A stretch of DNA of 64,000 nucleotides, taken from the NCBI GenBank assembly GCA_025526995.1, contig JAHLKG010000006.1:806001-870000 (forward strand), in the 5' to 3' direction. Positions 49,456 through 64,000 of this stretch are shown one piece after another; position 1 is the first letter of the stretch, and every line of letters starts with the position of its first letter. The position numbers and the translations under genes were made by a program. The notes below the pieces were generated by a model. That model was not told the DNA's origin. It saw nothing but the letters and a program-made list of their open reading frames with translations, and did not search any database. The DNA is from Powellomyces hirtus (taxonomy: Eukaryota; Chytridiomycota; Chytridiomycetes; Spizellomycetales; Powellomycetaceae).

Positions 49456-51808
49456 ATGTTTCAGCGGAGTACACAACGAGGGGGAAGCGGCATAGGAAAA
49501 GGCAGGGGCCGCCCGTTATGGGATGGAGACGATCCTTTGGAAGATGACGATACCGAGATGTCCGCCCCACCTCCGAAACGACGCTTCCTGGGCTTGGGCG
49601 ACGACGATGACGCAGACCATCACCTCAACCGAATGTCAAATGCAGGGCAAACAGCTGATGGGCCGGAATCACGAATGGGCGGTTCCGCTGCACCTGCAGT
49701 TAATGACGAAGAAGATGAACTGGATGCGTTCATGGCCGGTATCAATGCAGAAATCAAGCATCAGGAAACGGCGCCTACAGCGCCAAAACCACGAGCAGCA
49801 CCCGAAGAACTCCAGGAAGAAGACCATATGGAGAGTTATGTCAAACTCATGAAGAATAGAGGCGTTGTGATTGGCAAAAGTGGTCCTGCGGATGTACATC
49901 GCGAAGTGGATTCTGATGAAGAGGTCTACGCCACGGCACGCGCGGTGGACGCCGCGATGGGCGAACTGGACGAAGGCGGGGACCTTCAAGGAGATGTGCG
50001 GCGGCGGGACATCGAACCGCTCGCGGCAGTTGATCACTCAAAGATAGAATACCAGGAAATTGCAAAGGATTTCTACGAGGAACATCCGGACATTGCGGCA
50101 CTGACTGAAGCGGATGCAGTAAAGATTCGGGCCCAATTGGACATGCGGGTTCGCGGTGCGGATGTCGCGAAGCCCTGTATATCGTTCGCGCATTTCGGAT
50201 TCGATGAGGCGCTCATCAACGTCATCCGCAAACACGGATACACGGAGCCAACGGGAATTCAGCGGCAAGCCGTCCCGGTTGCTCTTGGTGGCCGCGACAT
50301 TATCGGCATTGCGAAAACGGGAAGTGGCAAGACAGCAGCATTCATATGGCCCATGCTGGTCCATATGATGGATCAGGAAGAACTCGTCAAGGGTGATGGC
50401 CCAATCGGCCTCATCCTCGCACCCACCCGAGAACTCGCGCATCAGATCTACATTGAAGCCAAAAAGTTTGCCAAAGCTTATTCCCTCAAAGTCTCGGTCG
50501 TGTATGGTGGCGCACCGAAAGGGGATCAATTCAAGGAACTGCGCGCGGGAGGCGTGGAGATCCTGGTTGCGACGCCTGGCCGTCTCATTGATCTCGTTAA
50601 AATGAAAGCGACCAACCTTCATAGAGTATCCTATCTGGTGCTCGACGAAGCTGACAGAATGTTTGACTTGGGGTTCGAGCCTCAGGTTCGCTCCATCTGC
50701 AATTCTGTTCGTCCCGACCGCCAGACTCTCCTCTTCAGTGCCACCTTCAAGAAGCATATCGAACGGCTTGCTTCCGATATTCTCACCGATCCGGTCCGCA
50801 TCAGCATTGGCGCAGCAGGCACGGCCAATGCCGACATCACGCAGGTCGTCCAGGTGCTGCCGGACGACGGATACAAATGGAACTGGCTCACAACCCGAAT
50901 CGTCCAGTTCTCGGTCAATGGGGCGGTTCTCATCTTCATTGGTCGGAAAACAGGCGTTGATCAGCTTGCGGAGAGCTTGAATGACGCGGGATTCCATTGT
51001 CGACCGCTGCATGGCGATATGCCGCAGCATGAGCGAGACGCAGTTGTGAGAGATTACAAGGCTGGAAAGTTCAAGATCCTAGTCAGCACAGACGTCGCTG
51101 CCAGGGGACTCGACATCAAGTCCATCAAGACCGTTGTCAACTATGATGGTAAGTGTGTTATTTGCGCTCGTGCTGAATGATATGAGCGGCACTAACGAGG
51201 TTTTCCTGGCACTAGTCGCGAAAGATATCGATTCTCACATCCATCGTATCGGCCGAACCGGTCGCGCCGGTGAAAAGGGCACAGCCTACACACTCGTAGC
51301 AGCAACAGAAGATCGATTCGCCGCCGAACTGGTCACCAACTTGCAAGACGCGAACCAGCCCATCCCGGAGGACCTCCTTACCGTCGCCCTGAAGAACCCG
51401 CGGTTCAAGAAATCGCGAGACAGAGGCGCAGGGGGAGGATTTAAAGGCCGCGGAAGAGGTCGCGGGCGAGGTGGACGGGGAGGCGGGAGAGGCGGAGGTG
51501 CTTTTAGTGGGGGCTCCAATCCCAACATGGCACCGTTAGGCAGAGGAGGCATTGGACATGCACCATCACCACCATCTTCAAATTACCCCAACAACCGCCG
51601 TGTCCCACCACCATCTCAACATGCGCCACCACCGCCGCGCCATTTCATGGCGTTTCAACGAGCTGCCTCGTCACAAGGAAGCTCGACATCTTTCATCGGT
51701 ACACATCACCAACAGTCATCAACACATGCGCCACCTCGTCAATCTCCAGCACAGAATCACCAATCACCACCTCCCCATCCTGAGCGTAAACGAAGATGGG
51801 ATGCGTGA
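49456..51808 (+). CDS. DEAD-box RNA helicase, DDX42-like
   Basis: Two exons (49456-51148, 51216-51808) give 761 aa. The acidic N-terminal third ends with a segment like the DDX42/DDX46 group (MESYVKLMKNRGVVIGKSGP; YEEHPDIAALTEADAVKIRA). Helicase motifs: TGIQRQAVPVALGGRD (Q), [55 protein letters not shown] and HRIGRTGRAG. The C terminus is Arg/Gly-rich (RGRGRGRGGRGGGRGGG), then Pro/His/Gln-rich, ending KRRWDA. DDX42 associates with the U2 snRNP in animals; here the role is inferred. The single intron lies between motifs V and VI. Confidence 0.9.
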
Positions 51809-52395: not shown

Positions 52396-54042
52396 TCAAT
52401 ACATCGGGCGCGGTATCGAGTCTCCAGACATAGGAGACAATGTATGGGAACGTTGCTGTCGAGACGGAGACGGTTCCAGCTGCTGTTGGCGTTGCGGGGA
52501 CTGTTGTTGTGAGGGGTGTCGCTGTTGTTGTTGCTGGTGTGGTTGCAGTTGCTCTTCTTGAGCAGCGTTTCCGTCATTTTTTGGCGGTGCGTTCGGGGGT
52601 TGTTGAGAGAACTGGCAAGGCGCGGGATGAAGGATATGGTTAACGAAAGTCCGTCACAAAGGTAGATCAAGGAGTATATAGTGTACCTGAGGCGACGTGG
52701 AAATATACTGCTGAATGACATTACAAGTGCAGTTCTGATGAAGCAGTAACTGACTTTTGAGAACCATGACTTCCTCCTTGAGCTGCGAGATGATAGCTTG
52801 CAACTGACGGTTGGTCTGCCCGACTTCGGCCGACTTGACTTCAAGGTCCTGCAGCCATTGTTTCTTCTTCATGCGGCACTTTGAGGCCGCAAGTCTGTTT
52901 CGCTCCAGGAAGCGCTTTCGCTTGTCATCCTGTTCTTCCTCGGTTGGTGGCGTACGGCGTTTGATGCCAGGTTTCAAGTCACTGCCGTCCTCGCTGCTAC
53001 CAATGTTGCGTTTCTGATCGACGGGCGACGCCTGAAGTGTGCTGGTGGTGCTGATTGCAGAAGCTCGGCGGTTGGTTAGCAGATTGCCCGGTGCCACAGA
53101 TGACGGATACACAGCTAGCGGGTCGATCGTGTGTTCTAGATGCGACTTTTGATGTTGATACATCTGTTGTTGCTGTTGCACAAGATGTGCAGCTTGCTGT
53201 CGCTGGAACTGCTGCTGAGCCGTTAGCGGTATTTGCATTGTAGTTTCCATAAATGACAACTGTTGTTGTTGATGTTGCTGCTGATGAAATTGGAGATCGG
53301 TGTTGGGGAATTGAAGCGAGTCAACTAGATTGACATGTGTCGAAGGCGCTTGGATGCGCTGCCGTTTTGCTGGCAACTGCAACCCGAATGAGTGCGGTTG
53401 CAGCACCTGCTGTGAGACCACTGCACCTGTGGCGAGGAGGTCCGGCACCTCATTTGCCATGCCATACATGCTGGCATGGAAGTTATGGCAGTTTTCGCCA
53501 GCAGGAGCCACTGGCGGCGATGTTGTGATAGGGATCGGCGTAGAATCTGATGTGCTCGGACTGCTGGACGGGGTGGGCAAAACGGTGGCAACATTTGCTC
53601 TTGGGAACGCTTCGGAAGGGTTGGAAAAGTTGGTAGCATTCCAGGTGAGGGAGACACCGGTTGCTGCAAGCACTGCCGCATTCGCGTCAGCCGTCGTTGC
53701 TGCCGTGATGCCGTCTGCCGTGATTGACGACATATTCGTGTTCATCGGGTCATCGAGCTTTTCATTGAAGCTTAATTCGAACGGATTGAAGTTGCCAGAT
53801 ATGTACGAGGTGATCAAACCAGGCGTAAACTTGAAGTTGACACATTCTTGCAAAAAGCGGGTGGGCGTTGCAATTTGAGAGTCTATCAAGAAAAGCGACC
53901 GGGGAAATTGATCAATCTTTGCGCTGTACGAGTTCATCTACACGCTAACAAGCTTACCAGTGCCACCGTCGAGGAACCCTACGTCTGACTGTAGGAGCGA
54001 GGGAGTTGGTAGAGCATCGGTGAGGAGAGACATGGAAGACAT
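52396..54042 (-). CDS. bZIP transcription factor, ATF/CREB type
   Basis: Three exons (54042-53958, 53882-52687, 52611-52396) give 498 aa in phase. The N terminus begins MSSMSLLTDALPTPSLLQSD, then TPTRFLQECVNFKFTPGLIT. Long Gln-rich runs follow in the middle (HQQQHQQQQLSFM; QQQFQRQQAAHLVQQQQQMY). The bZIP region has the basic segment RKRFLERNRLAASKCRMKKK, containing the NxxAAxxCR DNA-contact signature, and a leucine zipper starting LQDLEVKSAEVGQTNRQLQA. The third exon adds another Gln/Pro tail (QPHQQQQRHPSQQQSPQRQQ) ending PMY. It is most like fungal Atf1/AtfA stress regulators; the target genes are unknown. Confidence 0.88.
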
Positions 54043-55450: not shown

Positions 55451-58267
55451 ATGTCGACCGCAAGGATCAAAGCATCTATCACTGCATTAGTGGCAGCGGC
55501 CACGGCTGCTGCCGCTGCCTTGCCAGCCGGAACGGCACCTTCGCCTCCGTTATGGATTGCACCAGTGTCAGCTCCAGCCGGCGGCTGGCCCGCTGCTAGT
55601 GAGACTCAAGCGGCTCGTACTGCCATGGAGGCAGCTCGCGCCGATACTTTGCGTTATAAACGCCAGCAGGATCTAGAAGTGATTGATCGATTTGTTACCT
55701 ACCATCAAAATACTTACCCTATCCTGAATCGTATTCACAATGGGATCGACGAGCTCACTTACCTTACCCGACATGTACCAACTACGTTGTCAGCTGAAGT
55801 CAATGTCTGGCATGCCCAATATATGCTATTGATGGTGGCTTTGCCGGCTGCCCCAACGGAAGGCCCGTTGGAATCGTGGGTTTCTGGATTCCTCTATTGA
55901 TGCGCACCAAAAAACGTTACAGTTCGATTACACGCGGAGATTCGTGCTGCTTCTTTGAAAACATCGCTTGAAGACTATATTTGCTATATCGAACGCCGAC
56001 TCCACTTGGAAGCATTAGCCATCCGTGCCAATGGCGCCTATATGGAACGCCCAATGACGAATCATGAACTTGTTGACCTGTTCAAGTTGGGTTTATCTCG
56101 TCACCCTCGATACAACCAATATCTGGTACACTCGATCGAACAATATGCCACAAACACGCTTACTAGTGATCGAACGCAGATTGATTTCCCGACCGCAGTT
56201 ACGGTCACCCGCAATGCGTTCAACGCCAAAGGTCTAACCAACCATGATCTAATGGCTACGCAATGGACATGGTCTTCTCCAACAAGTTCGCCCGGTAATC
56301 GGTCTACGCCTTACTCACGACGAGGCCGTAATACTCCTCCGACGACTCCTAATCGTCAACAAGGACCACCTCGCACCCCAACTCGGAGGCAATCAAATAT
56401 AGCCGCCGATCCTCAGACCCCTCAGACGCTGTGCCCACAAAGATAGGAGCCACAATCACAACGACGTCAGGGTAATCAAGGAAGGTCTTCCAGTTCCAAT
56501 CGCATGTTTTGCACTTGATGTGGTTGTACGAATCATCGAGCCAAAGACTGTTTTGCCAGACAACATGCTGATGGAACGCCTCTTGATGATACCGCTGCAT
56601 CTTTAGGCCGACGGGTGAAAACAGAATCTATAACGGATTTTCTGAACGGTTGGGACCAATAAGGGACTCTGTATCCCAACCACATCAAGTATCCCGCTTC
56701 TGATCTTCCATTTTGCCCACGTCTCCTATCTGCCATCAATCAAAAATGTCCAAGTCAAACTTCGAATTCTTCGGCTCCATCATGGATGATCACTGTGAAG
56801 ATCGCTGGCAAAATCATTCCTGCTTTACTTGATACCGGCTGCAACACTATGGTGATGCAACCTCGTTTTGCCTATGATATGAAACTTTTGACCACTCCAC
56901 TACCTAAACCCTATCAAGTCCACACTGCCGCCGAAGAGCATGTGCTAACGATTGACACAACTACGGAGCAGCCTGTGGATGCATTCAATGCGAATACCGA
57001 CACTTTCGAATGGATTGCCACTTTTAAGTTCGAGATTGCTCCTATTGGCCTTACTTGTATTCTGGGTCTCCGCTTTTTCGAAGCGATCGGCAATCATTAC
57101 GTTACGACATCTATTCGCCCTCATCATATAGAATTCAAGATGAATGGACGAGACTCTAAAATTATCACCCTTCGAGACTTTCATTACGACAAAGAACCGG
57201 ACTCCTTTGTTCGACGTGTTTCAGCTTATCAATTGAAACACATAAGTCCCGAACAGGATTGCCCCCGTCAACAACCATATAAAGGCCTCTCCTCGGTTAC
57301 AACCAGAAGATTCAATAACGAACTCGCCGGGAATAAATACGTAGAGGCCTTCGCGATTCATGTCTGCCCGTGTTCTTCCGTTAATAACAATTCTACTTCT
57401 ACCTTGTGGCCAACATTCCTTGATGAAGTTATGCTGAAATTTCAGGATACATTGTTCACCGAACCTGAGCACTTACCACCCAATCGAGGCGATGACAACT
57501 TTCATATTGACCTCTTGCCGAACACACAACCTGTGTTTCAACAACTACGTCCTTTATCCCAAATACATCTAAAGGAACTACGTGCTCAACTCGACCACTT
57601 ATTGAAGAAAGGATGGATCCAACATTCCAAATCACCTTGGGGCGCCTCTGTTGTTTTCGCTGTCAAGAAGAACGGGGGTCTTTGAGTTTGTTGGGACTAT
57701 CGAGGCCTTAATTCCGTTACAAAACGTGATTGAACTCCCTTACCAAATCCATGAGAAATGCGCGATTGTATCTTGGGAAGCAAGTCTTTTCGCTTATCGA
57801 CCTCAAAGATGCGTACCACTGCCTTTTAATTGCACCTGAGGATCGTGAAAAGACAGCTATTCGAACGCATTTTGCCCTTTTCGAATATGTGGTTATGCCT
57901 TTTGGGTTATGCAATGCTCCGGGAGCTTTTCAACGACTGATGAATCGAGTTCTTGGTGACTTATACGATGTCACTGTTATTTGTTATCTCGACGATATTC
58001 TCATCTTTTCCGATACTCCCGAGCAACATGCGGATCACCTCTTGGAAGTCTTTACTCAGTTACGAGAACATGACCTTTATGTCAACATTGACAAATGTCA
58101 TTGGGGCAAGCCGGAAGTTGAGTTTTGCGGCCATATGTTTAGTGCTGAAGGCATGCGAATTTCCCCAGAAAAAACGGAAATTGTTCGCAATTGGCCGTTA
58201 CCTGCAACAACTCAACATATTCGCCAGTTTCTTGGTCTCTGCAGCTATTTTATTGATTATATCGAAC
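55451..58267 (+). mobile_element. Decayed Ty3/gypsy retrotransposon, interrupted at its 3' side
   Basis: Gag begins MSTARIKASITALVAAATAA, breaks with a stop at about 55900 and resumes at LEDYICYIERRLHLEALAIR. A pol frame follows with an aspartic protease (ALLDTGCNTMVMQPRFAYDM) and reverse transcriptase: QLDHLLKKGWIQHSKSPWGA, then a TGA and frame breaks where the VDYRGLN motif should be. The frame recovers at FSLIDLKDAYHCLLIAPEDR, MPFGLCNAPGAFQRLMNRVL and YLDDILIF. It stops at FLGLCSYFIDYIE, directly against the LTR end at 58268. RNase H and integrase are absent from this side. Several stops and frameshifts make it non-functional. This copy is older than the element inserted into it. Confidence 0.9.
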
Positions 58268-58506
58268 TGTTGGTCTGAGAGTATCTGAGTAGATAGTTGA
58301 GGAAGCTTTAGGGTAGTTGACTGAGCAGAACAACGAAGTATCTTAATCCCGCTCTACTGGAGAAAAAGAGAAAAGTCCCACCGATATATTAAGTGTGGAA
58401 GGAAAACTACTTATATCGGAGTTGATCACGTGGGTTCACGTGATCACGTAATACGCCCTGCAATGGCGCAGTTGTGACTCGAGGACAGAGTCTGTACGTG
58501 CTAACA
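58268..58506 (-). repeat. 3' LTR of the copia-type element
   Basis: On the plus strand it begins TGTTGGTCTGAGAG and ends CGTGCTAACA, so on the element strand it runs TGTTAGCACG...CAGACCAACA: a terminal inverted TGTT/AACA pair typical of copia LTRs. CGAAC (58263-58267) just outside is the candidate 5-bp target duplication. Confidence 0.82.
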
Positions 58507-58622: not shown

Positions 58623-59310
58623 ATGGCCAGGGTACGTCTATGAGATCCGCACCAAAGAGGCGTACGTTTCTAATTATGTGCTGGTGTAGTTGTCAGGTTC
58701 GGGCAAAGCAAAGCAGACGGCGAGAAAGACAGGACCACCGGTAACCGCTCCTGCGACGACCACAGCTCCTGCTGTGCCGTCGTCAGTGGTGCCCTCTGCG
58801 CCACAGGGAGGCGCACCCGCTGCGGGGTTGTCCCGAGCGGAGACTCGAACGATGTCGGCAGCGCATGCCCGACAGTTCCACCGGAAGGACCGTCAAGGGG
58901 TCCTTGAACGTCACATCGAGCAGGCGAAAGACCGGGTAAAAGACCGGGCGAGGTCTGGTACGCCTCTGGGTCGCGCACGGGCGACCGGGACGCTTGATGG
59001 ACTGAGGTCCATACTAGAGGACCGGCGGAGCCAGAAGCTGGCGGTTGGGAAGGGCAAGGATACGGCCCAGGCGAAGAAGAGGGCTGCGGACAAGAAGTCT
59101 GCAGCGGAGGTGAAGAGGATGTGGGACATCCTGGAGCGTGAAGCTCCATATAATGATGAGGAAGAGGAGGAGGAGGGGGCAGCCGAGGAGTTGGAGGGAC
59201 CATCGGGTTCTTCAAGCCGACGCTCACCCTCAAGCGATGAGGATGATGGAGGAGGGGCAGGCCCATCCTCCTTGGGAGGCATTGCTTCGGGTTCCGCAAT
59301 TGCGGTGTAG
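58623..59310 (+). CDS. Antisense accessory gene in the retrotransposon, H3-tail-like N terminus
   Basis: Two exons, 58623-58631 (ATGGCCAGG) and 58690-59310, separated by a 58-bp intron with GTACGT donor, TCTAAT branch-like site and GTGTAG acceptor; the phase agrees and the product has 209 aa. It begins MARLSGSGKAKQTARKTG: the KQTARK is identical to histone H3 residues 4-9. The rest is charged: a Pro/Ala/Thr stretch, then a basic region (GTPLGRARATG, KDTAQAKKRAADKKSAAEVK), REAPYND and a long acidic run, and a Ser-rich acidic end (SSSRRSPSSDEDDGGGAG). No known domain. It lies wholly between the RNase H end and the LTR and runs opposite to gag-pol. The sense frame here is also open but gives Pro/Ser/His-rich text. 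I judge the plus strand to be the coding one. Confidence 0.6.
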
Positions 59311-59329
59311 TACCCAAGGTAAGCCAGTG

Positions 59330-61080
59330 TTGTGAGTAATTCTCCTGACATTCAGCAAGTAACACTTGGGTTCGGTGTGCTTCCGTAGGCGCGCCCTCAT
59401 TGCGTATTCTTTCATCAAATATATGAGTTCCATTCGTAATCCTCAGGACAGTGTCTTTATGTTTGACAGTTGGGAAAGGCTTCGTAAAGATGTCCGCCAG
59501 TTGATCGTCCGTATTGGTGTCAATGATTTCGATAATTTGCTTTGCGAACAAATCGCGTATAGCGTGGTACCAAACGTCGATGTGTTTGGTGCATTGGTTG
59601 ATAGCCTTAGACTGAATCAAGGCCCCGGCGCTCTGATGATCGACATGGAGAGGGACTGGTCGAGATTTGTAATCCGGTTGAGGTCCCAAAACTTCCGCCA
59701 AGAGTTGGTGTAGCCATTTGGCTTTGTTGTGGCCGGTACTGGCAGCTATATACTCCGCTTTGGTCGTACTTTGGGCGGTGCACTTCTGCTTGCTGCTTTT
59801 CCACAGAACAGGAAACCCATTGTAAAGGGCCAAAATACCTGTAGTGGAAGTCCGGTCGGTGAGTTCTCCGGCATAATCCGCATCCGTGAATACGCGTAGG
59901 CCACGCGGATCATTTCGTTCGGATGTAAACTTGAGGGCATAATCGCGGGTACCCTTCAAATGGCGGAAAATGCACTTAACATTGTTCCAGTCGGAGTTGG
60001 TAGGTGCGGCAATGCGGCGCGCAACGTAACCAACTGCAGTGGCGATATCCCATCGCCATGTGATGGAGGCCCAAGTGAGGACCCCCACTGCTTCCTGATA
60101 CATTTTCAGATTCGTGAATGGGGTCGAATCCTCCAGTTGTTGGTTACGCGCTGATACGGTGTACGGAGAGGAGGCCGGATGGCAGTCGCTCATGCGGAAT
60201 TGTGCGAGAGCGTCGTCGATGTACTTGACATTTGAGATTTCGAGGGTACGAACAGGAGAGTCAAAGTCATATTTGTAGACGAGACCAAGGTGACTGGTTA
60301 CGCGACCTTGTTCCGTAAACTTGAACTTCGAATGTAGCTCCATTTTGCTGTTTGTCAGAATCTCCTGATCCTTCGCTGCAATCAGCAGGTCGTTGACAAA
60401 GACCATAATAAGGACCAAGTTGTCGTTCGACGGAGGTGTACGGTCGTCTGTCGCGTACTTGAAAAAGATACACGGGCATACAGAAACCGCTTCGTAGCGG
60501 AGCTTCAACAGTGCAGTCTTCAAGGTCTCATACCAAAGAAGAGGTGATTGCTTCAGGCCGTAGAGAGCTTTCAGTAGCTTCAGGACCCAATCGCCTTTGG
60601 GGTGATCCGGATCTTCGAATCCCTCAAACTGCTTGATATAGATATCCTTATCAATATCGCTGTTAAGGAAGGCGGTGACAGCGTCCATACTGTGGATGTC
60701 CAGCCCGTGCTGGACACAATACGCCAAGAAGAGGCGTAGTGCTGTGAATGGTAGCGTTGGTGAGTATGTATCACCAAAGTCGTGACCGGGTTGTTGAGAG
60801 AAGCCTTGAGCCACTGCTCTGGCTTTGAACTTGTTAAAGGTGCCATCGGGATTGACCTTCGTTCAAAAGACCCATGTTGTTCCGATCACGCGCTTGTTAT
60901 GTGGACGCTTCGTGAGTTCCCATGTACCGTTATCGACCAGGGATTGGTACTCAATGCGTGCAGCCTTGAAAAATTCCTCCTTCTAGGGGTTTTCATCGCT
61001 TGCTTCCATGTCATGGCGTCTTCGTTGATTGTTGCTTGAGTCCGCGCGCGGGCGGCGTATGCAGCAATGGGGTCATTTTG
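59330..61080 (-). pseudogene. Copia reverse transcriptase and RNase H (damaged)
   Basis: On the minus strand: ARIEYQSLVDNGTWELTKRP (the usual start of copia RT), a TGA after TTWVF, then KFKARAVAQGFSQQPGHDFG, TLPFTALRLFLAYCVQHGLD, MDAVTAFLNSDIDKDIYIKQ and LKALYGLKQSPLLWYETLKT. The catalytic box reads FVNDLLIAA in place of the usual YVDDLLI. RNase H follows with DADYAGELTDRTSTTG, TKAEYIAAS and HIDVWYHAIRDLFAKQIIEI. After RITNGTHIFDERIRNEG the frame stays open to 58670, but that tail is antisense to the accessory gene and is probably not RT-RH protein. In-frame TGA, a one-base shift near 60985 and the FVND change argue that this copy is dead. Confidence 0.9.
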
Positions 61081-62436
61081 TCATGTGCCAACATCGTACG
61101 CGGCTACTTGATTCTCCCAGTCATCCAATGCTGTAGTGTCGAGTAGTGAAAGTCGGGACTCCCACGTAGGTTCTTGATATCCCTCCCACTTAACCAAGTA
61201 CTCTTTTGTGTGCACCTTACTGCGGCGCTCGTCGATAATCGCCTCCACAGTGTATTCGACGTCATCCTCCTGACTCTCCTCATCTAGAAGGTCAAGATGT
61301 GCTGGGTCCTGCTGATATTTGGGTTCGAGTCCCAAGTCTTCTTTGAAGATCACGTCTTGTGACACTTCGACCTTGTCAGTGATAGGATCCCAAACCAGAT
61401 ACCCCTTGGTACCTGATGGTTGAGCATAGCCTACCAAGTAAGCCTTCTTTGCTCGATTCCCCATTTTATCGCGTCCTTTGCTTGTTAGAACGGAATACGC
61501 CACGCAACCGATACGCCGAAGATGGGCGACATCAGGACGCCGGCCAAACAGTATTTCATGCGGCGTCTCCTTGTTGATGCGGTTGTATGTAAGGGAATAG
61601 ATGTATCCAGCCGCTACCAGTAGAGCAGGCCAGAATCTTCGAGGTAGTTTCGTATCCGCAAAGGTGGCGCGGACCCTGTCCAGCGCCGTGCGATGCCATC
61701 GTTCGGCAATCCCGTTTTGCTGACTCGAATAGGCCGCGGACTTTTGATGAGTGATACCATTTTCCAATAGGTACTCTAGAACCTCGCCAAAGTATTCGGT
61801 GCCTCGATCCGTGCGTAGGATCTTGATTTGTCGGTCAGTCTGTTTCTCAATCCACTCCTTGTAAATGAGAAACTTGTCGAGTATGACTGCTGAATCCTTT
61901 GAAGGAATAGGGAAAACAGTCACGTATCTGGATGCGTGTTCAATGAACTCCAGCGAATAGCGTGATCCTTCGTAACCAGGGATGCGAAATGGTCCTTGTA
62001 GGTCTGAATGAATCAGCTCACAGATCTCCCTGGTTTCAACGTTACCAGGGGAGAATGGAAGACGAGCGGCTTTTCCTAACACGCAGGCTTCACAATCTTT
62101 GAAGTCGCTTAGATCCCCCACTACGGACCAACCGTCCGTAACCGATGCCATCTTCTCCAGGACGTGTTTGCCAACGTGTCCAAGACGAGCATGAGCGAGT
62201 TTAGGAGAGACTTCAACAGTGCATGCTTCTGAATCCGTCCACAGACTTTCAGACAGCAGCGTACCTTGCAGGTAATACGCGTTGTTGCGGCGTACGCCTT
62301 TGGCGATTTCTTTGCCGTCTTGCGTGAAAATGATGTCTCCATTCGACTTGAAGAGCATGTCAACGCCTTGATCGTTGCATTTCGCTACCGATACGAGATC
62401 TCGTCGTAATCCTGGCACATGCAGGACTCCGTCCAA
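61081..62436 (-). pseudogene. Copia integrase with C-terminal chromodomain
   Basis: Frame of 451 codons. GAG-pre-integrase: HARLGHVGKHVLEKMA and CEACVLGKAARLPFSPGN (HHCC-type zinc site). Catalytic core D-D-E: ELIHSDLQGPFRIPGYEGSR, ILRTDRGTEYFGEVLEYLLE and SSQQNGIAERWHRTALDRVR. ETPHEILFGRRPDVAHLRRI and KAYLVGYAQPSGTKGYLVWD are the copia-specific C-terminal region. The last 59 residues form a chromodomain (VEYTVEAIIDERR, KEYLVKWEGYQEPTWES, DDWENQ) at about 61084-61260, with all three aromatic-cage positions kept (Tyr of VEYTVE, Trp and Tyr of KWEGY). It ends at a TGA before RT, so in an intact element the chromodomain would lie between integrase and RT in one polyprotein, or end a separate integrase product. 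Confidence 0.9.
61084..61260 (-). other. Chromodomain coding segment
   Basis: Encodes the 59-residue end of the integrase frame. It shows the HP1/chromovirus pattern: Y-V-E-x-I-(I/L)-D at the start, (E)-Y-L-V-K-W-x-G-Y in the centre and TWE followed by a helix (TTALDDWENQ). It lies in the same frame as the copia integrase, with no stop between them. Confidence 0.88.
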
Positions 62437-62446
62437 CTCGAGCGGA

Positions 62447-62910
62447 TTACGGATAGTCGTTAACTTCTACTTGTACCATACCCCGAACTGTAGAGGGTAG
62501 TGATGTTTTGTCAGCAAGCATAACAGCTCTGACATCACTGTACACGGTTGAGTGATCCAAGGTTGTTTTGTGAGGTGTCATGTGGTCCGTAGCGCCAGAG
62601 TCGATGAGGGCTTCATACGGTTGTTCTTGGCGGACCCAGACGTGTAATGCTTCTACAGCATTTGTGCTAACAGCACCATCATATGACTGCTTCGTCTTGT
62701 TCTTCTCCATCTCGGATTTGAACTTCTTTAACACTTCGCCCTCCTGTGTTCGGTGTTTAGGGTCTCCACAGGCCCAACAACCCGACTTTTGTGATTGTTG
62801 ACCTTTGTTTGATGGAGTGGATTCCTTATCCTTCTTGCCGTTCGTTGACTTCTCCCCGTGGTTCTTGCCACCCTTTTGTTTCTTAGATGCGTCAGTGTGT
62901 GCGGCACCTG
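62447..62910 (-). pseudogene. Copia zinc knuckle and aspartic protease segment
   Basis: Minus-strand text after the gag stop: KKQKGGKNHGEKSTNGKKDK, then a knuckle CWACGDPKHRTQEG (CX2CX4H, with Gly where the last Cys should be), KFKSEMEKNKTKQ, and the protease YEALIDSGATDHMTPHKTTL (DSGAT active site). It ends in VEVNDYP and a stop; the integrase frame is shifted by one base. The stop before it (TGA at about 62912) separates it from gag. Such breaks could be programmed recoding, but the lost Cys favours decay. Confidence 0.8.
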
Positions 62911-62911
62911 G

Positions 62912-64000
62912 TCACGTATCCGTTGTGGTCCCGCTAGGTTTCTTAGCCATGTTGGCAGCGATCCTGGATGCAGCGGCCTGTAAACTGCTCAAATCAGTTA
63001 TGTTTTCTTCATTAGCCTGAACCAAGGCCGCGAGGTCTGGTGTTAGCGCGTTGATGAAGTAATCCTGAAGGACATAATCCGGTGTCTTCGGCAGAGAAAA
63101 TGTCAGCATGTTGAACTGAGTGATGTACTCATCCATGCGACCTTTGGGACGCAATTCCCGTAATTTCTGCAGCGAATCTCTGGTGTGGTTTCGTGGCGCG
63201 AACCGCGCCAGAAGGGCGGACCTAAGACCGGTGTTGGTTCTGCCTGAATCAACGTCTTCAAAGTCATGCCACGTCGTAATTTCGTTCCTTTTATTTGGTG
63301 AGAGCGACTGCCACCAAGTGTATGCCCATCCTGTGAGTTTCGTAGCCACAAAATCTACGAGAAACTCGGGCGGAACCATTTCGTACTTCACAACCGTCTC
63401 AATCTTGTCGATGACCGTTCGAAGTTTGACCATATTGGCTTCCCCGTTGTAAGATCCAATATCTTTCAGCGTTCCATCCACGAAAGCCTTCGCACCTCGA
63501 CTGTCGACGATTTTGGTCGTCACGCTGTGTATGCTCGATGTCGGTGATGTAGGGCGGCGTTCAAATGGAGGACGTTGGTATTCCTGTTGAGCTCCAATCT
63601 CCTGATTGTACTCTGTCCACGGTGCAGCAAACCCGTCGTTGCGAGTGGGTGATGGTGTGCGTACGCACCGTGGCGCCGTACGTACCTGAGGGTTGATCGG
63701 GACGTTCACATCCTGATCCATGCGCCATTTCATTTGGAGCATTTCCGTTAGTTGGGCTAGAGAATTCTCAAGCCTATCTATCCTATCCACGTCCGCCTCA
63801 CGCGGGCGGACATGCACGGTGTTCGCTGATTCCCCACTTGGGAATGCCGCTGGAGTACTGTAGTTGATCGTTCTGTGATCATCTGTACTGCTTGATAGGG
63901 GACGGGTATCGACCTTGCCATCGCGTCGGTCGATGTTTTGGGTACGCCCTTCCAATGCGTCGTCGCCCTCGTTGGCGTTAACGCTCAAAGGCGTTGGCTC
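62912..64000 (-). CDS. Gag protein of the mosaic element, Ty3/gypsy-like (start outside window)
   Basis: Open frame from beyond the right edge to a TGA at about 62912; about 360 residues visible. The C-terminal half has the pattern of the Ty3/gypsy retrotransposon gag family: FVATKLTGWAYTWWQSL, ITTWHDFEDV, LLARFAPRNHTRDSLQKLRE, GRMDEYITQFNMLTFSLPKT, and VLQDYFINALTPDLAALVQA. Copia gag proteins normally belong to a different family (UBN2-type). The N-terminal half is polar and includes VDRIDRLENSLAQLTEMLQM, a likely coiled coil. There is no ATG at the right-hand edge of the visible frame. Confidence 0.85.
   Translation of the reverse strand, partial: EPTPLSVNANEGDDALEGRTQNIDRRDGKVDTRPLSSSTDDHRTINYSTPAAFPSGESANTVHVRPREADVDRIDRLENSLAQLTEMLQMKWRMDQDVNVPINPQVRTAPRCVRTPSPTRNDGFAAPWTEYNQEIGAQQEYQRPPFERRPTSPTSSIHSVTTKIVDSRGAKAFVDGTLKDIGSYNGEANMVKLRTVIDKIETVVKYEMVPPEFLVDFVATKLTGWAYTWWQSLSPNKRNEITTWHDFEDVDSGRTNTGLRSALLARFAPRNHTRDSLQKLRELRPKGRMDEYITQFNMLTFSLPKTPDYVLQDYFINALTPDLAALVQANEENITDLSSLQAAASRIAANMAKKPSGTTTDT

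What the first reader, a model, noticed from the sequence alone, without database searches (positions are those of the whole stretch)
61081..62436. Chromodomain fused to a Ty1/copia-type integrase
One uninterrupted frame goes from a copia GAG-pre-integrase/D-D-E core into a chromodomain with a complete aromatic cage. Chromodomains at integrase C termini are the defining feature of Ty3/gypsy chromoviruses; I know of no common Ty1/copia lineage with one. It would let a copia element target H3K9-methylated chromatin, a convergent or borrowed solution.
Basis: partly seen in the sequence, partly recalled or inferred. Interest (0 to 1): 0.88.

Follow-up and report, generated by a model that had tools for sequence, protein, structure and literature searches.

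The report
Chromodomain-bearing copia retrotransposon in chytrid fungus
In what is probably a chytrid fungus genome, families of the copia type of jumping gene carry a histone-reading chromodomain fused to the enzyme that inserts them into DNA, a feature normally seen in the rival gypsy type; it is real and conserved, though a diatom copia lineage with the same fusion was described in 2009.

Summary
Window 61084-62466 (minus strand) is one open frame holding a copia gag-pre-integrase domain, integrase core, SH3 domain and a chromodomain (Pfam 2.6e-8) with all three cage aromatics; RT downstream is RVT_2, copia-type. It is not an inserted fragment: 81 of 94 same-family matches in the genome run through the chromodomain, an unbroken 1270-aa frame in another copy reads from gag through integrase and chromodomain into RT, and the chromodomain is under purifying selection (pN/pS 0.12). 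Two more copia families here (B, C) have a chromodomain in the same slot; a fourth (D) has none. Relatives occur in the chytrid Powellomyces hirtus and in unnamed contigs. Gag is Ty3-type instead of the usual copia type. The host has HP1 and a Pre-SET match. The likely role, reading H3K9 methylation to guide integration, is inferred. Chromodomain-copia itself is not new: diatom CoDi-A/CoDi-I elements are published (PMC2774666, PMC5348765). Nine literature searches showed me no report from fungi. Verdict: new variant of a known kind.

The parts
61084..62466 (-). Open frame: copia gag-pre-integrase, integrase core, SH3 domain and chromodomain (461 aa)
61111..61254 (-). Chromodomain (residues 405-452; cage Y405, W427, Y430)
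   Evidence: PF00385 34.1 bits; cage columns; chromodomain fold predicted, best matches H3K9me3-bound chromodomains
61336..61548 (-). Integrase SH3-like domain (residues 307-377)
   Evidence: PF25597 1e-21
61726..62016 (-). Integrase catalytic core (residues 151-247)
   Evidence: PF00665 2.3e-8; D155, D220, E255 invariant
62071..62232 (-). GAG-pre-integrase domain (residues 79-132)
   Evidence: PF13976 7.8e-9
58673..60862 (-). RT-RNase H frame of the same element (RVT_2, copia-type)
   Evidence: PF07727 2.4e-45; RNase H by reading, no Pfam match
62450..62911 (-). Protease region, Pol_BBD, DSGATDHM motif
   Evidence: PF22936 5.6e-7; motif seen in the translation
62915..64000 (-). gag frame, Ty3-type capsid; runs on past the window end
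   Evidence: PF03732 8.7e-11 and PF19259 Ty3_capsid 2.2e-10; no other family at E<=1
58268..58506 (-). 3' LTR (239 bp) of this copy
   Evidence: 95% identical to the LTR of another copy at C2
57730..58267 (+). Gypsy RT frame (RVT_1) that the element's 3' LTR abuts and cuts off
   Evidence: PF00078 9.4e-31; junction at 58267/58268

Best explanation
The window holds a decayed copy of a Ty1/copia LTR retrotransposon family (family A) whose integrase has gained a C-terminal chromodomain, placed between the integrase SH3 domain and RT. Shown: the domain order gag, protease region, integrase, chromodomain, RT; its fixation in the family; purifying selection on the chromodomain; a complete aromatic cage; related families in this genome, in Powellomyces and in unnamed contigs. 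Inferred: after polyprotein cleavage the integrase keeps the chromodomain, which binds methylated histone H3 (most likely H3K9me2/3), tethers the integration complex and biases insertion towards heterochromatin and other transposons. It would work like a type I chromovirus chromodomain, on a copia integrase. Families A and C and the environmental relatives probably form one clade that also carries a Ty3-type gag.
For: Pfam architecture of the window frames and of an unbroken 1270-aa frame in another copy. 81 of 94 family matches extend through the chromodomain. pN/pS of the chromodomain is 0.117 against 0.211 in the integrase core, over 20 copies (the 20 best of the 94). Cage aromatic in 20 of 20 rows. 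The domain model's best PDB matches are chromodomains bound to H3K9me3: CDY1, Chp1, Oxpecker. Families B and C have a chromodomain in the same slot. Host HP1 with partial chromo and chromoshadow and one Pre-SET match. 28 of 70 merged family A rows lie within 15 kb of another (random mean 6.0, maximum 16 of 500 draws), and 29 of 72 rows lie within 50 kb of a family D row (mean 7.1, maximum 17). The C2 copy sits inside a family C element, with a 5-bp target duplication; the window copy's 3' LTR abuts a gypsy RT frame (other flank not shown to be gypsy). With A and C rows held together the tree likelihood is higher than in the free quick tree, AU p 0.921.
Against: No binding or integration data. 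Family D, without a chromodomain, is even more clustered (74 of 78 rows within 15 kb of another), so clustering does not need a chromodomain. Family A is hardly enriched at the D rows themselves (7 of 72 within 15 kb; random mean 3.4, maximum 10). The low pN/pS is not special to the chromodomain: the 27-residue linker before it gives 0.098 and the gag-pre-integrase part 0.118. The chromodomain score is modest (34 bits). 13 of 94 family matches stop before the end of the chromodomain; some may be versions without it (not read). The clade of A, B and C is not supported by the free trees, only not rejected by the AU tests.
Confidence: 0.74

Rival explanations
1. The chromodomain is a chance insert: a chromovirus fragment or an assembly joint next to a copia integrase in this one copy.
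For: The genome has many gypsy chromodomains, and the window copy abuts a gypsy element.
Against: 81 of 94 family matches across the genome reach through it; it is under purifying selection; P0001, from a public contig, has it at 69% identity over the integrase-chromodomain region.
Confidence: 0.02
2. The chromodomain is real and functional but does not read H3K9me: it could bind H3K27me or another methyl-lysine, or serve integrase assembly or DNA binding.
For: Foldseek also matches H3K27me3-bound chromodomains (CDYL2, CBX7). Plant type II chromovirus chromodomains lack cage residues and have unidentified partners (PMC6317226, passages).
Against: All three cage positions are kept aromatic in 20 of 20 rows, and the host has HP1 and a Pre-SET match.
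Confidence: 0.2
3. Copia elements in this genome captured chromodomains more than once, for example family B from host HP1 and family A from a gypsy element.
For: The free IN+RT tree needs 3 changes of the label. The B chromodomain groups with host HP1/CHD1 (85/83), and A plus environmental ones with one gypsy family (89/77) (68 columns, bootstrap not settled, long-branch warning).
Against: All 15 chromodomain rows as one clade has a higher likelihood than the free quick tree (AU p 0.709), and the chromodomain tree does not reject one copia clade (AU p 0.543). 13 of 13 listed proteins with Ty3_capsid also have the chromodomain, which suggests shared ancestry.
Confidence: 0.4
4. The family is simply a member of the diatom CoDi-A/CoDi-I lineage of chromodomain copia elements.
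For: CoDi-A is a published copia group with a C-terminal integrase chromodomain (PMC2774666, passages).
Against: The only named organism among the closest relatives is a chytrid, Powellomyces hirtus; I saw no diatom name among the listed hits, but most rows carry no name.
Confidence: 0.15

Closest known systems
CoDi-A / CoDi-I Ty1/copia elements of diatoms (PMC2774666, PMC5348765)
   Same: Copia pol with a chromodomain at the integrase C terminus
   Different: Host is a stramenopile, not a fungus; gag type and phylogenetic relation to the present elements not compared (sequences not obtained)
Chromoviruses (Ty3/gypsy), including the gypsy chromodomain families of this genome
   Same: Chromodomain after the integrase; Ty3-type gag (recalled for chromoviruses in general)
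   Different: Here RT is copia-type and lies after the integrase, so the chromodomain is internal to the polyprotein
Chronos (oomycete Ty3/gypsy) and Ectocarpus gypsy lineages with chromodomains or a Tudor domain (PMC5348765, PMC12477816)
   Same: Chromatin-reader domain captured by an LTR element outside the chromovirus clade
   Different: Those are Ty3/gypsy
Ordinary Ty1/copia elements (listed relatives without chromodomain)
   Same: Domain order, RVT_2, gag-pre-integrase, SH3; primer site complementary to the tRNA-Met anticodon arm in the C2 copy
   Different: By eye, most listed relatives without a chromodomain have the copia-type gag PF14223

Membership tests
Ty1/copia (Pseudoviridae) | RT of the RVT_2 type | tested here: met
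   2.4e-45 in the window, 4.7e-56 in L013; no RVT_1 match at E<=0.001 in L013
Ty1/copia (Pseudoviridae) | Integrase upstream of RT | tested here: met
   one unbroken frame in L013: integrase core 616-712, RT 978-1234
Ty1/copia (Pseudoviridae) | GAG-pre-integrase domain rather than Integrase_H2C2 | tested here: met
   PF13976 in frames of A, B, C and D; gypsy frames L029, L040, L048 give Integrase_H2C2 instead
Ty1/copia, usual but not defining traits | 5-bp target duplication, TG..CA LTR ends, primer site to the tRNA-Met anticodon arm | tested here: met
   C2 copy only: duplication AGACT, seen also against the empty family C site; 239-bp LTRs; 14-nt primer site complementary to a host tRNA-Met gene
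Ty1/copia, usual but not defining traits | Copia-type gag (PF14223) | tested here: not met
   gag matches Retrotrans_gag and Ty3_capsid instead. I therefore call the pol copia and the element a mosaic
Chromovirus (Ty3/gypsy) | RT of the Ty3/gypsy type and integrase after RT | tested here: not met
Chromovirus (Ty3/gypsy) | Integrase C-terminal chromodomain | tested here: met
CoDi-A / CoDi-I | Copia integrase with C-terminal chromodomain | tested here: met
   definition from passages of PMC2774666
CoDi-A / CoDi-I | Placement in the CoDi-A clade of the RT tree | not tested
Type I (H3K9me-reading) chromodomain | Three aromatic cage residues | tested here: met
   20 of 20 rows at each position
Type I (H3K9me-reading) chromodomain | Binding to H3K9me | not testable with these tools
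   only a predicted fold

The most novel reading that the evidence does not exclude
A distinct mosaic lineage of LTR retrotransposons, in chytrids and unnamed environmental eukaryotes, in which a copia pol is combined with two chromovirus-like modules, a Ty3-type gag and a cage-bearing chromodomain; it acquired heterochromatin reading independently of the diatom CoDi-A elements and of Ty3/gypsy.
Probability: 0.45. Interest if true: 0.72.

Novelty: new variant of a known kind. Interest (0 to 1): 0.57.

Why it matters
Chromodomain targeting is usually told as a Ty3/gypsy story: a plant survey found chromodomains in 94% of chromoviruses and in no other LTR group it included (PMC6317226, passages). 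High-copy copia families with a conserved, cage-bearing chromodomain in a small genome, beside a copia family without one, give a natural comparison for asking whether a chromodomain changes where an integrase inserts. The linked Ty3-type gag suggests that modules move between the two superfamilies.

Tried and rejected
Inserted chromovirus fragment: rejected by 81 of 94 copies and by pN/pS. RT of Ty3/gypsy type: rejected by profile and domain order. Separate origins of the chromodomain in A and C: suggested by the free trees but not upheld by the AU tests; left open. Clustering of family A as proof of targeting: not accepted, because family D without a chromodomain clusters more; the first count (32 of 72) included two copies split into four rows, so I recounted with 70 merged rows (28 of 70). 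Host identification by 18S failed because the machine was busy; the chytrid assignment rests on Powellomyces hits for family C (75-88% identity; taxonomy) and is likely, not shown. The first PDB search of family B used the wrong frame, repeated in frame. Gypsy sequence was not found beyond the window copy's other end, but the query there could not contain the gypsy part expected on that side.

Full report
WHAT IS THERE. The window is C6:806001-870000 of a 29.3-Mb assembly in 60 contigs. On the minus strand at 61084-62466 lies one open frame of 461 aa. Pfam finds, in order, GAG-pre-integrase, integrase core, the retroviral SH3-like domain and a chromodomain at residues 405-452 (34.1 bits, E 2.6e-8, cut-off 25.1). 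The same element continues into an RT frame (RVT_2, 2.4e-45), and upstream lie a protease region and a gag frame. D155, D220 and E255 are invariant in 20 aligned rows. This copy is broken: the four parts lie in separate frames, and homology at its 5' end stops about 30 nt short of the LTR of the compared copy. Its 3' LTR (58268-58506) abuts a gypsy RT frame at 58267. Beyond the window's right end, family C sequence starts in L081 (637-1200, 97% identical to a family C gag).

NOT AN INSERT. A search of the own genome gave 94 matches (lower bound: 92 of 781 candidates scored). 81 of the 94 extend to residue 453 or beyond and so cover the chromodomain; 13 do not. Other copies have unbroken frames across the fusion: a 1270-aa frame in L013 reads Ty3_capsid/Retrotrans_gag, Pol_BBD, gag_pre-integrs, rve, SH3, Chromo, RVT_2, and L004, L012, L018 and L019 are open across their whole 4.4 kb. 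In 20 copies (the 20 best of 94; two with a stop in the region) pN/pS is 0.117 in the chromodomain, 0.211 in the integrase core and 0.201 over the frame; the linker before the chromodomain (0.098) and the gag-pre-integrase part (0.118) are as low. In the chromodomain Y405 and W427 do not vary and Y430 varies only synonymously.

ELEMENT ANATOMY. One copy at C2 was examined with its flanks in separate pieces: LTRs of 239 bp, 99.2% identical, about 6.2 kb from end to end; TGTT..AACA ends; 5-bp target duplication AGACT; and a primer site whose first 14 bases are complementary to the anticodon arm of tRNA-Met. The genome has that arm at four places; one was read and is a tRNA-Met gene. Priming from within the tRNA (half-tRNA) is known from some copia elements (recalled). 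This copy lies inside a family C element: its left flank matches L043 up to base 1939 (99.4%) and its right flank from base 1935 (99.6%), so the same five bases flank both ends.

OTHER FAMILIES IN THE SAME GENOME. Family B (L021-L023; 12 rows at 86% identity or more) and family C (119 rows) are also copia by RVT_2 and gag_pre-integrs and also carry a chromodomain between SH3 and RT. The one family D frame tested (L053) has no chromodomain match, even with filters off. Gags: A and C match Ty3_capsid (2.2e-10 and 2e-17). B gives no Pfam gag match at E<=0.1; its first gag piece matches a profile built from the A, C and environmental gags (52.8 bits). That profile also gives up to 36 bits to ordinary copia proteins, so the B gag type is likely but not sure.

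RELATIVES. Three protein searches were made with integrase-chromodomain regions (200, 1747 and 53 hits; 120, 120 and 53 rows listed; in 46 and 47 the candidates were capped). By the precomputed Pfam labels the chromodomain is in 3, 16 and 1 of the listed rows. The last (P0263, Closterium) also carries gypsy-type domains and is not counted as copia. All 13 listed proteins with Ty3_capsid also have the chromodomain. By eye, most other listed relatives have the copia gag PF14223 and no chromodomain; some of these (such as P0076, P0234, P0252) also match Retrotrans_gag, so that family alone is not distinctive. Named relatives of family C are Powellomyces hirtus proteins (P0121-P0123, 75-84%; P0136, 88% over 38% of the query). 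Powellomyces is a chytrid, so the host is probably one too. One chromodomain hit (P0135) is labelled as a bacterial MAG.

PHYLOGENY. On 211 of 298 proteins with full integrase and RT domains (87 dropped, 10 of them with a chromodomain, counting P0003), the free FastTree trees give A+P0001 (1.0), C plus ten environmental rows (0.999 in the combined tree; in the RT-only tree C falls elsewhere) and B as separate groups without support for joining them. An IQ-TREE of 81 of these 211 rows gives the same three groups. AU tests do not reject one clade: all 15 chromodomain rows together, p 0.709; A+C, p 0.921; in both cases the constrained tree had the higher likelihood, so the free search was incomplete. 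The chromodomain tree is short (51 rows, 68 columns, bootstrap not settled, long-branch warning): A with environmental rows 94/95, nearest gypsy family 89/77, B with host HP1/CHD1 85/83, C apart. One copia clade is not rejected (p 0.543), nor is one without B (p 0.894). A single origin for A, C and the environmental elements is my reading; B is open.

CHROMODOMAIN FUNCTION. The cage positions are Y/F, W, Y/F in 20 of 20 rows. AlphaFold models give the three-strand-plus-helix chromodomain fold (mean pLDDT 75.3 for the whole frame, 78.3 for the domain alone, modelled on alignments of 20 and 8 rows). Foldseek's best PDB matches for the domain are CDY1, Chp1 and Oxpecker chromodomains bound to H3K9me3; one match is below E 0.001, and the 50 listed all have probability 1.00. 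By sequence the window's chromodomain matches HP1-type chromodomains of the PDB (best E 1.1e-6). The integrase part matches retroviral intasomes. The host has HP1 (partial chromo plus chromoshadow in L037) and one Pre-SET match, so H3K9-type heterochromatin is likely present (inference).

DISTRIBUTION. On contigs C1-C20 (22.8 of 29.3 Mb), 28 of 70 family A rows (two split copies merged) lie within 15 kb of another (random mean 6.0, maximum 16 of 500 draws). 29 of 72 unmerged rows lie within 50 kb of a family D row (mean 7.1, maximum 17), but only 7 of 72 within 15 kb (mean 3.4, maximum 10). D rows are the top 119 of the 150 RVT_2 rows, taken as D by score and not checked one by one; 74 of the 78 on C1-C20 lie within 15 kb of another. 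This fits placement of A in TE-rich or pericentromeric surroundings but does not show that the chromodomain causes it. Duplication of segments and purging of insertions from genes would also cluster copies.

LITERATURE. Passages read in PMC2774666 state that CoDi-A copia elements of diatoms have a C-terminal integrase chromodomain and that none was then known in other copia elements; PMC5348765 (passages) repeats this for CoDi-I. PMC6317226 (passages) found chromodomains in no LTR group of its plant survey other than chromoviruses. PMC3248453 (passages) speaks of chromodomains in fungal Gypsy elements. PMC12477816 (passages) reports further captures in gypsy. Nine searches of the open library gave no report of a chromodomain copia element in fungi among the listings and passages I saw; most papers of subscription journals are not in that library. 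That chromovirus chromodomains direct integration to heterochromatin (Gao et al. 2008) is recalled; of that paper I saw only the title, in reference lists.

VERDICT. Real, conserved and well outside the usual pattern, but not without precedent: a new variant (probably fungal, several families, with a Ty3-type gag) of the known chromodomain-copia kind.

Noticed in passing
G000 contigs, e.g. C8:380-441k, C12:336-398k, C16:513-559k, C25:143-225k, C28:3-59k: Copia family D (1368-aa frame, many copies with identical scores, no chromodomain in the frame tested) forms a dense cluster on many contigs (two places on C7), as centromeres made of a copia element would.
   Followed up: partly
L021-L023 (family B): The chromodomain of copia family B is strikingly HP1-like; by eye it shares the stretch GKL.F.IKWKGYPSSDNTWE with the host HP1 exon in L037, suggesting a possible capture from host HP1.
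   Followed up: partly
P0138 (Trichonephila clavipes copia protein): A possible methyl-CpG-binding domain (PF01429, residues 221-270, weak) sits between SH3 and RT, the same slot as the chromodomain here.
   Followed up: no
L081:637-1200, just beyond the right end of the window: A family C gag on the plus strand (97% identical to L084) lies next to this family A copy, with the same 14-nt tRNA-Met primer site at L081:581; with the gypsy element the area is a cluster of retroelements.
   Followed up: partly
13 family A rows, e.g. C28:100235, C8:691988: Matches that stop before the end of the chromodomain, some with long open frames; they may be truncated or lack the domain.
   Followed up: no
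C22:380-442k: A cluster of six diverged family C relatives (78%) whose matches skip residues 211-298 of the query and resume at 299.
   Followed up: no
window 49456-51180 and 52654-53937: Host genes: a DEAD-box helicase and a bZIP transcription factor.
   Followed up: no
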